DNA of 46,649 bases from Ignavibacteria bacterium CG1_02_37_35 (GTDB lineage Bacteria; Bacteroidota; Ignavibacteria; Ignavibacteriales; Ignavibacteriaceae). Where the stretch lies: NCBI GenBank assembly GCA_001871325.1, contig MNVA01000007.1, positions 1 to 46,649 on the forward strand, in the 5' to 3' direction. A program made the position numbers and the translations under genes. The notes below the pieces were generated by a model, which was not told the DNA's origin, did no database searches, and saw only the letters and a list, made by a program, of their open reading frames with translations. Positions 36,081-46,649 of this stretch are shown in pieces. Each line of letters begins with the position of its first letter. Position 1 is the first letter of the stretch.

Positions 36081-36144
36081 GTTTTAAATTGTTTTGTCAC
36101 TGATATTTTTTGAAGACATTTAATTGTGAAATCCAAATATAAAA

Positions 36145-36195
36145 TATTGAACAAGGAATGATGAAGTTTTTTCCATTCGTAATTCGTCATTCCTT
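36145..36195. repeat. fragment of the dispersed AT-rich inverted repeat
   Basis: ATTGAACAAGGAATGATGAAGTT matches the 46499-46599 repeat arm with an internal deletion. It forms an imperfect hairpin: AAGGAATGATGAA (36153-36165) pairs with TTCGTCATTCCTT (36183-36195) at 12 of 13 positions. It lies between the converging lipoprotein gene and the aminopeptidase gene. Confidence 0.6.
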
Positions 36196-36216
36196 TTAGG
36201 GTTTGATTATGCCGGC

Positions 36217-37179
36217 TTAGATAAGGAGTTTTCCTTTTTTCATAAGGAGCGTATCATCCAGGAAAACTGAAGGCTTTTTGATAACGCCATCTAGATGCAA
36301 AGCAACACCGACACTGCCCCCCATTGATTTATTATTCCCGAGTGCGATGTGGATGGTTCCAAGCACCTTTTCATCTTCCAGCAAAACACCGCTGAGTTTT
36401 GCTGCATGGTTTGTTCCTATACCAAACTCTGCAATGTTTCTTGCTTCAGCCCCGGCAGCCTCAAGCATTTTAACTAATTTTTTTGCCATCTTCCCGCCGG
36501 TTATCTCGGTAGCATATCCATTCTCAACTTTTATTTTGATGTTCGCATTTTTAACTAATCCCAATCCAGCCATCGAACCATCAACTATAAAAATTCCGTT
36601 CGAGGTTCCTTCAACAGGGGCAAGAAATGTTTCTCCTGTAGGCAGATTTCCGCTTTCACTTTTTGCATGAAATAATCCTTTGGAAGCATACGAAGTTCTT
36701 CCTTCAATTGAAAATGAAATATCTGTCCCAATCTTTGTAGTAATGCGTACGCGTTTACCATTTTCTAAAATACTTTTCAATTTTAAAGAAAGGTCGGAAA
36801 TTTTGTTGTAATCTGTATTTAAACCACGAATCATTACCGCTTTTGTGATACCGGGAAATGTAGCGATGCGGGCACCCAGGGAAGAGGCATTTCTTCTGGC
36901 ATCAGTATGGGTGAGCGAAGTTGATGTGGGGCATAGAACAACATCAAATTTTTTCATTAATTCAGAAATTTCGTTTGATGGTTCTTCACCGTTCACCTTT
37001 CCCGGAATGATTTCAACATACAACGAATGATGACCCAGCCGCTTTGCATTTTCAAAAAGAGATAAGCCGATTTCTCTTTTTTTAGCATCGCTGATAATCA
37101 GGACACTTTCGTCTTGGGTTGTTCCCATGCAATCTCGAATTGCAATTACGGACGCTTTGTCAAGTTTTGATAGTTTCAT
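36217..37179 (-). CDS. M29-like aminopeptidase (leucyl aminopeptidase, aminopeptidase T type)
   Basis: A 320-residue cytoplasmic protein. The likely metal ligands are visible as E190 (APVEGTSNG), E251 (AEFGIGTN), H277 (LGTIHIALGNN), H295 and the aspartate of DGVIKKPSVFLDD. That is the short-form M29 pattern of two-metal aminopeptidases, with an N-terminal region that ends in the TSTSLTHTDARRNA motif. These release N-terminal residues from peptides. The gene begins 6 nt downstream of the 251-residue exported protein gene, with GAGGAG before its ATG, so the two are probably co-transcribed. Confidence 0.82.
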   Translation of the reverse strand: MKLSKLDKASVIAIRDCMGTTQDESVLIISDAKKREIGLSLFENAKRLGHHSLYVEIIPGKVNGEEPSNEISELMKKFDVVLCPTSTSLTHTDARRNASSLGARIATFPGITKAVMIRGLNTDYNKISDLSLKLKSILENGKRVRITTKIGTDISFSIEGRTSYASKGLFHAKSESGNLPTGETFLAPVEGTSNGIFIVDGSMAGLGLVKNANIKIKVENGYATEITGGKMAKKLVKMLEAAGAEARNIAEFGIGTNHAAKLSGVLLEDEKVLGTIHIALGNNKSMGGSVGVALHLDGVIKKPSVFLDDTLLMKKGKLLI

Positions 37180-37941: not shown

Positions 37942-38085
37942 AGAACTTATAGAGTTAGTAAATATATTCTCCGCTTAAAAGGCGAGAAAGAAAAAATTTA
38001 AGAACAAGGATTAACGAAATTTGATTTTTGATGTTGATTAAATCTTCTAACATTGCTAATACTTGTTCATTGTAATCTGTCTTGT

Positions 38086-38127
38086 AACTTCATCATTCGA
38101 AATTTCTTTTTCTCTATTCATTATTCA
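38086..38127. repeat. dispersed AT-rich repeat arm (copy of 46558-46599)
   Basis: This 42-nt stretch beginning AACTTCATCATTCGAAATT and ending TATTCATTATTCA matches the right arm of the 46499-46599 repeat at 38 of 42 positions with no gaps. The left arm is absent here. It lies in the 190-nt gap between the MFS and 251-residue protein genes, a gap that otherwise shows no features. Confidence 0.8.
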
Positions 38128-38131
38128 ATTT

Positions 38132-39643
38132 TTACTTTTTACCTTCGACAGACATCCCTTGTTCAAGCCCATGTTTATGGGGTCCCATTTCATGCATACG
38201 AAGCATAAAAGCAAAAAATAAACCAAAGAAACCCAGCAGCGAGAAAATCCACATCCCTAAATTATAACCGGTTGGGTTAGCCGCGCTCGCCTTGGAAAAA
38301 TCATTAGCATAGCCAATTATCAAATTAAATCCGAACAAACCGATATTTTGGATCATCGTCATTAAACCGTAAGCTGTACCAAGTTTTGCCGAGTCAACCA
38401 CAAGTGAAACTGAGGGCCACATCACCGCAGGAACAAGCGAGAACGCAATTCCCATCAGCGACATCGGGATCAAAAGATAGATCGGGATTTGCGAATGAAT
38501 ATCAAAAAAATCTAAGTTGAGCGAAAGAAAACCGTGCAAACCCAACGGGGTAGCTAAATCAATTTTGTACGCCATGATTAAATAGACGGGAATAATAAGA
38601 AGCGACCCGAACATCATTAATAAAGAACGTTTTCCGATTTTATCTGCAAGCAACCCGAACAGCGGTGTAAAAAACATTGCAGCCAGCGTTAACATACTCG
38701 AAAGATTTCCCCCGACTTCTCGCGTAGTGCCGTGCGCTTCCTGAAAAAATTTAATTGCAAAAGTTTGGAACGGAAACATTGCCGAGTAGAAGGTAACACA
38801 TATCGCCGTTATGTACCAGAATGAAGTTGGGAATGAATTTGATTTCAAGAAAAGAATTAACGCCGCAACAATTATTGCGATAAGATAAATCGTCCATTTA
38901 TCACCGTTGACAAAAATTAGAATAATTGCAGCAACTGCTAAGGCTGAAAAAATATACCAGCGTTTTCGTTCTTTTATCTTTAGAATATCTGAGAGTAAAA
39001 CTGCATCCTGCTCACCGTCTTTCGGCATTTTGAATTTTTTTGTTGCAGCTAAATCAAGAACAAAATAAATGAGAATAAATACGACCGCCGAAACTCCGGC
39101 AAATACGGAAATCCACAGCGGTGTTTGCCAATTCGCATAAAGACTTTTTCCCCAAGAAGGAGAATTTAAAGCGAGAAATGACCCAAGTCTGGCGACGGTT
39201 AAATTTAATCCGAAGGCAAAAGACAATTCTTTCCCTTTGAACCACCGGGCAATAATTGTGGTGATGGCAACGATCATTGATTCAGCACCCAAGCCAAAGA
39301 TCAAACGCCCGCCAGCCATAAAATAAAGGTTGGAACTCATCGCCGTTACAACCGCGCCGATAAAAATCAACAGCGTAAAAAGTACAACGGAAATTCTTGT
39401 TCCGATTTTGTCAATTAGTAGTCCGCCGATTAAAACCATAATGATATTCGGAAAACTGTAAATGGCTTGTAGCAGACCAATATTGGAATCGGTAAAATGT
39501 AATTGTTTAGAGAGGAGATCGGCAAGCGGACTGATGCAATCGTAAATATAATAATTGCCGAACATCGCAAGACTGACAAAGAGAAGGACTGTCCATCGGA
39601 AAAATTTAGACGGTTCTGGTTTCAATAAAAGTGTTTCTTCCAA
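38132..39643 (-). CDS. MFS transporter
   Basis: A 503-residue membrane protein with about twelve hydrophobic helices. The family loop-2/3 motif is in LLIDKIGTRISVV (near residues 78-90), a second equivalent is LLADKIGKRSLL near residue 335, and both halves show the usual glycine-rich helices. Substrate is not evident; the neighbours (PepD, OPT, aminopeptidase) hint at peptides or amino acids, which is inference. The start is TTG with AAGGA 6 nt upstream. The C-terminal tail (EMGPHKHGLEQGMSVEGKK) is short and cytoplasmic. Confidence 0.85.
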   Translation of the reverse strand: MEETLLLKPEPSKFFRWTVLLFVSLAMFGNYYIYDCISPLADLLSKQLHFTDSNIGLLQAIYSFPNIIMVLIGGLLIDKIGTRISVVLFTLLIFIGAVVTAMSSNLYFMAGGRLIFGLGAESMIVAITTIIARWFKGKELSFAFGLNLTVARLGSFLALNSPSWGKSLYANWQTPLWISVFAGVSAVVFILIYFVLDLAATKKFKMPKDGEQDAVLLSDILKIKERKRWYIFSALAVAAIILIFVNGDKWTIYLIAIIVAALILFLKSNSFPTSFWYITAICVTFYSAMFPFQTFAIKFFQEAHGTTREVGGNLSSMLTLAAMFFTPLFGLLADKIGKRSLLMMFGSLLIIPVYLIMAYKIDLATPLGLHGFLSLNLDFFDIHSQIPIYLLIPMSLMGIAFSLVPAVMWPSVSLVVDSAKLGTAYGLMTMIQNIGLFGFNLIIGYANDFSKASAANPTGYNLGMWIFSLLGFFGLFFAFMLRMHEMGPHKHGLEQGMSVEGKK

Positions 39644-46269: not shown

Positions 46270-46330
46270 CTATCGGAATAAATTTTTACTAAATCATTTT
46301 AAGAATATTAATGATACAAATAAAATGATG

Positions 46331-46361
46331 GAATGGATGAATGAAAATGAATGGATGAATG
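46331..46361. repeat. 13-nt direct repeat GAATGGATGAATG
   Basis: GAATGGATGAATG occurs at 46331-46343 and again at 46349-46361, and an inverted GAAAA...TTTTCCATTC segment follows. It lies in the 380-nt non-coding end of the window; a frame across it is not convincing. Confidence 0.5.
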
Positions 46362-46411
46362 TTTTCCATTCAATCATACAAATATTTAATCATTCTTCAA
46401 TAATTATTTGT

Positions 46412-46435
46412 TTCGCCGCGGCGAATTGTTTTTTT
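46412..46435 (+). terminator. likely terminator of the phosphoesterase gene
   Basis: TTCGCCGCGGCGAA (46412-46425) is a perfect 14-nt palindrome that can form a TTCGC/GCGAA stem with a CGCG loop, and it is followed by TTGTTTTTTT. It lies about 145 nt past the stop codon of the phosphoesterase gene. The stem is GC-rich in an AT-rich region. Confidence 0.5.
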
Positions 46436-46474
46436 GATTTTCGGTTTATCCGGGTTAGGCACTTAGAGAATCGC

Positions 46475-46496
46475 TATCGCTAACATGTTAACGATA
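46475..46496. repeat. 22-nt near-perfect palindrome TATCG..CGATA
   Basis: The 22 bases from TATCGCTAACATG to TTAACGATA read alike on both strands except one pair. The palindrome abuts the large inverted repeat at 46499. Confidence 0.6.
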
Positions 46497-46498
46497 AT

Positions 46499-46599
46499 TG
46501 AATAACGAATAATGAACAAGAAATAATGAATTTCGAAGTTAAAGCAATAAGCAGTTCAACTTCATCATTCGAAATTCCTTGTTCGATATTCATTATTCA
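46499..46599. repeat. large imperfect inverted repeat of a dispersed family
   Basis: Two 42-nt arms (46499-46540 and 46558-46599) pair at 32 of 42 positions around a 17-nt loop. The right arm is found again at 38086-38127 with 38 of 42 identities, and a shortened copy lies near 36145. The arms are made of repeated GAAC/TGAAT units and look like a mobile or REP-like intergenic family rather than a terminator. Confidence 0.75.
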
Positions 46600-46649
46600 T
46601 TTTTTCCTTTAGCTTTTTTCACAAGCAGGGTCTTGGGAAAAACGTAGTA

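What the first reader, a model, noticed from the sequence alone, without database searches (positions are those of the whole stretch)
46499..46599. Dispersed inverted-repeat family with three copies in this window
The 42-nt arms at 46499-46540 and 46558-46599, the right-arm copy at 38086-38127 (38 of 42 identical) and the deleted copy near 36145 (GAACAAGGAAT joined to GATGAAGTT) share a distinctive unit. All lie between genes. The right arm alone has spread, so it may be a mobile or recombination-derived element.
Basis: seen in the sequence. Interest (0 to 1): 0.5.

Follow-up and report, generated by a model that had tools for sequence, protein, structure and literature searches.

The report
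Self-targeting mini-transposon family in Ignavibacteria
The repeat is one copy of a roughly 180-base mobile element, present dozens of times in this environmental bacterium, that inserts beside a short DNA motif which its own end also carries, so copies pile up head to tail and break the genome assembly.

Summary
The 42-nt arms are the inside of a 189-bp element at window 46456-46644. Its genome (G000, Ignavibacteria) has at least 39 matches of 117 nt or more (one search scored 40 of 156 candidates); 31 of these 39 lie within 250 bp of a contig end and 19 of 39 show head-to-tail junctions. What is conserved is the two ends: a hairpin end (LE) and an end (RE) finishing TAAGNGCCTA. Interiors vary (161-447 bp) and lack the arms in two relatives. 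LE sits directly 3' of TAAGNNNCTA-like host sequence: CTA at 38 of 39 junctions in a first count, and TAAG within one mismatch at 26 of 33 after strict screening. The RE side is unspecific apart from a first A. None of 20 complete elements shows a target duplication; removing one 230-bp copy restores a gapless polyphosphate kinase frame. RE ends in the target motif, so each copy is a landing site for the next. Longer versions in two relatives carry an ORF, but only its last 17-31 residues are assembled, without family match. Best reading: non-autonomous IS200/IS605-like (PATE-like) elements; mechanism inferred, transposase unidentified.

The parts
46456..46644 (-). Complete A/B-type element, 189 bp (element's own left-to-right direction is the minus strand)
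   Evidence: Profile match 208.4 bits over positions 1-189; boundaries from comparison of the genomic loci
46456..46494 (-). RE: TCGTTAACATGTTAN4TAN9TAAGNGCCTA on the minus strand; last 10 nt equal the target motif
46499..46540 (+).
46558..46599 (+).
46614..46642 (-). LE hairpin, two bases (46643-46644) from the element's tip
46645..46649 (-). TAGTA: start of the target motif (TAGNNNCTTA as read on +), cut by the contig end; the usual C-type module here begins TAGTACCTTATC
46302..46458 (-). Degraded C-type module abutting the RE of the unit (profile positions 48-177)
   Evidence: 49.3 bits; best in 60 random windows 7.2
38000..38137 (-). Degraded A/B-type copy: interior only, both arms, no ends
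   Evidence: 35.6 bits, E 1.9e-10
36135..36253 (-). Possible heavily degraded copy
   Evidence: 14.8 bits against a best random score of 12.7

Best explanation
A family of short non-autonomous transposable elements with palindromic ends and neither terminal inverted repeats nor target duplications. SHOWN by sequence: both ends are conserved while interiors differ; insertion is precise and directly 3' of TAAGNNNCTA-like sequence, with almost no specificity on the other side; RE ends in the same motif; head-to-tail arrays and A-on-C stacks exist. INFERRED: an enzyme supplied in trans by longer, ORF-bearing members recognises the LE hairpin and RE stem, cuts after CTA at both ends, joins them, and inserts the circle or strand after a target CTA, as single-strand (HUH Y1) IS200/IS605 transposition does. 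Because RE supplies a fresh target, the element feeds its own tandem arrays.
For: Copies and arrays. Target: first count, 39 distinct host-LE junctions from 6 genomes, CTA 38 of 39, TAAGNNNCTA exact 18 of 39, TAAG within one mismatch 32 of 39, exact TAAG at 14 other offsets 0-2 of 39. Stricter count, with looser recognition of other element ends and contexts repeated elsewhere removed: 33 junctions from 7 genomes, CTA 32 of 33 (that scan admitted only CTA, TTA, CAA or CTG there), exact 11 of 33, within one mismatch 26 of 33 against 0-4 of 33 at 20 other offsets. RE side: first base A in 56 of 76 contexts, next bases mixed (59 of 81). No duplication: 0 of 20. Removing the 230-bp copy in G028 gives a 379-codon frame aligned without a gap over 349 residues to polyphosphate kinase 1xdo; joining one or two bases off loses the frame. 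LE hairpin 95.4% of cells paired, slid controls 33.5-71.8%; RE stem 231 of 252 cells, slid controls 52-166. ORF-bearing versions: in G138 the frame ends PEEMSELDNRYIKIKDEINAICQSYGIKAAA, in G028 KDEINAICKYYGIKAAA, each running into RE; 7 of 17 codons differ, 5 silently (counted by eye). PATE definition: PMC3119063 (passages). IS200/IS605 rules: PMC7290912 (passages), PMC6006769 (passages).
Against: No HUH transposase has been tied to these ends: 9 Y1 genes in G000, none with a unit in its fetched locus. The known ORF tail hits nothing significant in Pfam, NCBIfam, PHROGs or PDB sequences. Only 2 nt separate LE's hairpin from the cut, so no tetranucleotide guide lies 5' of it as described for IS608. 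The target is bipartite over 10 nt rather than 4-6 nt. No strand bias relative to GC skew (25 of 58 stretches), though skew there follows gene direction, so the test is weak. Two-sided base-pair changes in LE are no commoner than in shuffles (288 of 500). RE folds better than shuffles in only 1 of 4 versions tried (z -2.42; the others -1.38, 0.22, 1.20). Of 22 insertion sites joined, only the polyphosphate kinase one gives a decisive reading frame; the frame test at a second gene (HTH_3, L286) did not separate the true joint from shifted ones.
Confidence: 0.55

Rival explanations
1. Recombinase-type element like IS110/IS1111: a double-stranded circle recombines with a target at a CT core, guided by a bridge RNA supplied in trans by the ORF-bearing member.
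For: CT(A) stands at both junctions, there are no terminal repeats or duplications, insertion is precise, and RE-LE joints read TAAGNGC-CT-A like the target TAAGNNN-CT-A. IS110 elements typically lack TIRs, form circles and often target repeats (PMC11208160, passages).
Against: Specificity is one-sided: beyond a first A the RE-side host bases are near background, and the three bases left of CT are unspecific, unlike continuous guide pairing. No Rfam hit in the window. The ORF tail has no family match. DEDD genes were not searched for in these genomes.
Confidence: 0.2
2. Another ssDNA or rolling-circle enzyme (IS91/Helitron-like, or a RAYT acting on an unusual REP) moves the ends.
For: Hairpin end, one-sided target and tandem arrays are compatible; the genome holds 9 Y1_Tnp genes.
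Against: No Y2_Tnp (PF04986) in G000, but that family rang in none of the 14 control genomes either, so this is uninformative. The GTAG tag of REPs lies 5' of their hairpin (PMC6006769, PMC8266576, passages); here the base order is CTA-NN-hairpin.
Confidence: 0.15
3. Ordinary tandem and dispersed repeat spread by recombination and slippage without a transposition enzyme.
For: Low-complexity interior; direct tandem units of 182 bp.
Against: Exact shared ends, a strong target motif at unrelated host sites, and precise insertion into a gene.
Confidence: 0.03

Closest known systems
PATEs (palindrome-associated transposable elements) of Haloquadratum walsbyi, related to IS605-type elements (PMC3119063; passages read)
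   Same: No terminal inverted repeats, near-terminal palindromes, no target duplication, too short for a transposase, ends shared with longer elements, frequent stacking with other mobile elements.
   Different: Target is bipartite TAAGNNNCTA instead of 4-6 bp; the palindrome is 2 nt from the LE tip and about 15 nt from the RE tip, whereas in those PATEs the 5' distance is the longer one; head-to-tail arrays through the element's own end (such arrays were not described in the passages I saw).
IS200/IS605 family (IS608, ISDra2) (PMC7290912, PMC6006769; passages read)
   Same: Insertion 3' of a fixed motif; the last bases of RE resemble that motif; hairpins at both ends.
   Different: No guide tetranucleotide 5' of the LE hairpin; transposase not seen.
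REP/REPIN elements with RAYT (TnpA-REP) (PMC3733652 abstract; PMC8266576 passages)
   Same: Dispersed palindromes next to a CT dinucleotide like the REP cleavage site.
   Different: 160-450 bp with two different ends, directional, no GTAG 5' of the hairpin; no Y1 gene of G000 found flanked by them.
IS110/IS1111 elements (PMC11208160; passages read)
   Same: Precise insertion, no duplication, CT at the junction.
   Different: Target information on one side only; no recombinase or bridge RNA seen.
BrickBuilt-type MITE with internal minisatellite in Porphyromonas gingivalis (PMC4596501; start of abstract in search listings only; the name BrickBuilt is recalled)
   Same: A mobile repeat of a Bacteroidota genome that combines a miniature element with tandem units.
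   Different: That is described as a MITE with an internal minisatellite; here whole elements, not internal units, are tandem.

Membership tests
IS200/IS605-derived PATE | No terminal inverted repeats | tested here: met
   Ends read TAGGC[AT]CTTAGA and, reverse-complemented, CGTTTTTCCC
IS200/IS605-derived PATE | No target duplication | tested here: met
   0 of 20 complete host-flanked elements repeat 3 or more bases across the insertion; the target's variable bases never equal those of RE; gapless polyphosphate kinase alignment
IS200/IS605-derived PATE | Near-terminal palindromes at both ends | tested here: met
   LE hairpin; RE stem 231 of 252 cells paired, but RE folded better than shuffles in only 1 of 4 versions tried
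IS200/IS605-derived PATE | Insertion 3' of a short fixed motif matching the RE terminus | tested here: met
   TAAGNNNCTA counts and RE consensus TAAGNGCCTA; motif longer than the usual 4-6 nt
IS200/IS605-derived PATE | Guide tetranucleotide 5' of the LE hairpin | tested here: not met
   Only two bases lie between CTA and the stem in 33 of 33 distinct LE sequences, a spacing that the search pattern required
IS200/IS605-derived PATE | Ends shared with an element encoding a Y1 HUH transposase | tested here: inconclusive
   ORF-bearing versions found, but only the last 17-31 residues are assembled, with no family match
IS200/IS605-derived PATE | Lagging-strand insertion bias | tested here: inconclusive
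   25 of 58 with the G-rich strand (60 stretches taken, 2 without a recognised end); skew follows gene direction, 27 of 27 where skew is strong
MITE | Terminal inverted repeats and target duplication | tested here: not met
REP/RAYT | GTAG 5' of the hairpin and flanking of a RAYT gene | tested here: not met
   (Y1 genes of G000 only)
IS110/IS1111 | DEDD recombinase (PF01548/PF02371) | not tested
IS110/IS1111 | Target specificity on both sides of the core | tested here: not met
   RE-side host positions 2-22 near background

The most novel reading that the evidence does not exclude
The ORF-bearing members encode a transposase of an undescribed family (or a strongly divergent HUH branch) that reads a bipartite TAAG-N3-CTA target one-sidedly and re-creates that target at its own right end, so the element is self-targeting by design and grows arrays at its sites.
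Probability: 0.3. Interest if true: 0.7.

Novelty: new variant of a known kind. Interest (0 to 1): 0.5.

Why it matters
It explains why many contigs of this genome end at one repeat and gives a sharp, testable insertion rule for a mobile element in a sparsely cultured class. An element whose end re-creates its own target is a simple route from a dispersed transposon to a tandem array. If the enzyme is new, it would be a sequence-specific integrator with a 10-nt bipartite target.

Tried and rejected
Right-arm-only spread: rejected, since the 38 kb relic holds both arms. Arms as the functional unit: rejected, because G017 and G028 elements lack them. Integron attC: considered from memory (GTTRRRY core recalled); joints read ACGTAGGC, so dropped without a formal test. 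Autonomous copy in G000: odd hairpin sites were read, and the ORFs beside the C177 one proved to be host genes (by eye); Y1 genes not flanked; Y2 search uninformative. Transposase tail: no useful hit. One search gave 0 of 395, but G138 and G028, which match within its threshold, cannot have been in that sample, so its zero says little. In one search only G138 and G028 (of 164) matched below E 0.1; 11 of the weaker loci were read and looked like chance matches in unrelated frames. One search used a pattern one base too long that missed its own genome, so its zero is void; one search repeats it correctly, but in 164 genomes of the order rather than 391 of the class. Viral contigs: searches gave no exact match; one search carried the same wrong pattern, so its zero is void too. 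Plasmids: none by DNA, one insignificant protein hit, E 7. Rfam at gathering score: none in the window. First junction count mixed in some diverged element ends and shared repeats and put at least one true host site (L286) with the A ends; a first stricter screen flagged too much by chance and was replaced. That screen dropped three false hairpins and, through its downstream filter, also the polyphosphate kinase copy (target GAAGCATCTA). Literature: searches listed no paper on such elements in Ignavibacteria (titles and abstract starts of the rows shown; passages only where cited).

Full report
WHAT WAS CHECKED. A profile from 22 distinct genomic copies without the window copy finds the full unit at 46456-46644 (208.4 bits), a relic at 38000-38137 (35.6) and a marginal one at 36135-36253 (14.8); the best of 60 random windows with the same three-letter statistics is 12.7.

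THE GENOME. The window is a complete contig, G000:C142, of a 3.66-Mb assembly in 242 contigs. The same-genus genome G001 appears to be the named MAG 'Ignavibacteria bacterium C18_metabat.bin.46', since contigs of 164227, 33881 and 7945 bases carry the element in both. In G000, one search scored 40 of 156 candidate places and lists 39 matches of at least 117 nt, so 39 is a lower bound. They lie on 36 contigs; 31 of 39 are within 250 bp of a contig end, where about 3% is expected by chance. The repeat breaks the assembly.

ANATOMY. In the window's direction the unit begins TAGGC[AT]CTTAGA and ends GGGAAAAACG, directly followed by TAGNNNCTTA. Read in the element's own direction (minus strand): host TAAGNNNCTA | two bases, hairpin TTTTTCCCAAGACNNNGCTTGGGAAAAA (LE), interior, TCGTTAACATGTTAN4TAN9TAAGNGCCTA (RE) | host. 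Two main lengths occur in G000, 182 and 189 bp. One search pairs 50 LE-RE combinations: 49 of 161 to 447 bp, and one of 555 bp that I read as ends of neighbouring elements. G017 and G028 interiors lack the arms. LE is found in 6 of 80 family genomes, with no match to the reversed control pattern; RE in 5 of 164 order genomes: G000 76, G001 18, G138 13, G017 4, G028 4, with two reversed-control hits in other genomes. That makes 7 carrier genomes in all.

STRUCTURE. Of 33 distinct LE sequences 31 were aligned (two divergent ones were left out): 95.4% of cells pair, against 33.5-71.8% when slid, but changes on both sides are no commoner than in shuffles. In 42 distinct REs, 231 of 252 cells pair, slid controls 52-166; variation is almost all one-sided and keeps G-T or A-T pairing. 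Single-strand folding supports LE (z -3.40) and only one of four RE versions (z -2.42; others -1.38, 0.22, 1.20).

INSERTION RULE. First count: of the distinct LE upstream contexts, 39 were taken as host, 11 as C-type module ends and 7 as A-type RE ends. At these 39, CTA occurs in 38, TAAGNNNCTA in 18, and TAAG within one mismatch in 32; exact TAAG occurs 0-2 times at 14 other offsets. On checking, some of the 39 proved to be diverged element ends or shared repeats, so I recounted: other ends recognised more loosely, contexts whose upstream 24-mer recurs elsewhere removed (10 of 43). In the remaining 33, from 7 genomes, CTA occurs in 32 (the scan admitted only CTA, TTA, CAA or CTG), TAAGNNNCTA in 11 and TAAG within one mismatch in 26, against 0-4 of 33 at 20 other offsets. 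On the RE side only the first base is informative: A in 56 of 76 contexts without a following LE. Of 20 complete elements with host on both sides, none repeats 3 or more bases across the insertion and none has the RE's variable bases in its target. A 230-bp copy in G028 interrupts polyphosphate kinase: with flanks joined the frame is 379 codons and aligns without gap over 349 residues to 1xdo; joining one or two bases off loses the frame. A 179-bp copy in G138 sits near the 3' end of an HTH_3 gene whose frame continues when joined, but the shift control there is not informative. The other 20 of 22 joined sites give no decisive frame.

SELF-TARGETING. RE's last ten bases fit the target. 19 of 39 G000 loci show an RE joined directly to an LE, and 10 of 39 an LE placed on a C-type module end. 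C-type modules (159-235 bp; hairpin CTGG..CCAG; end TAAGGTACTA) are a second family with related logic that mostly follows CCTA. C-modules without an A unit exist (L144, L145), so the motif was there before the A unit. In the window a degraded C-module (46302-46458) abuts the RE, and the five bases after the unit fit the start of another.

ENZYME. In G138 (another family of the order) and G028, longer versions have an ORF whose stop codon touches RE; the assembled tail is 31 and 17 residues. Seven of 17 shared codons differ and five changes are silent (by eye), so it evolves as protein. No significant library match. The rest of the ORF is missing because these contigs end there. The nine Y1_Tnp genes of G000 have other palindromes around them (palindromes by eye).

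JUDGEMENT. Mobile, precise, one-sided and self-targeting insertion is shown by sequence (about 0.93 confident). A single-strand IS200/IS605-like mechanism is the best fit (0.55); an IS110-like recombinase is the main rival (0.2). The recount did not change these odds: it lowers the share of exact TAAG but leaves the offset contrast. Membership in IS200/IS605 is not claimed: the guide arrangement at LE was tested and not met, and the enzyme is unseen.

Noticed in passing
L064-L070 (G000 C100, C168, C147, C57, C77, C8, C204): Seven of nine Y1_Tnp genes have a Y---Q--HH tyrosine motif, like subclass 1.2 of PMC6006769 (passages), said there to be generally without typical terminal IS200 structures, yet each lies among short palindromes that look like cognate REPs (by eye).
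   Followed up: partly
window 46302-46458; L016, L023, L024, L030: C-type module family (37 matches in G000) with its own hairpin and a CCTA insertion preference; hybrids with C-type LE and A-type RE occur in G001 (L226, L228, L229).
   Followed up: partly
L013, L024, L026, L043 left flanks: Several insertion sites lie in short AATTAGG-like repeats (AATTAGGAATTAGG), possibly earlier footprints or a preferred landing zone.
   Followed up: no
L077, L088, L150: Palindromes such as CCGCCGCGGCGG sit inside element interiors in several relatives, another nested repeat family.
   Followed up: no
L074 (DAOVVI010000332.1, Cyclobacteriaceae MAG): Exact 21-nt RE core in a distant lineage with no other part of the unit found; chance or transfer not resolved.
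   Followed up: no
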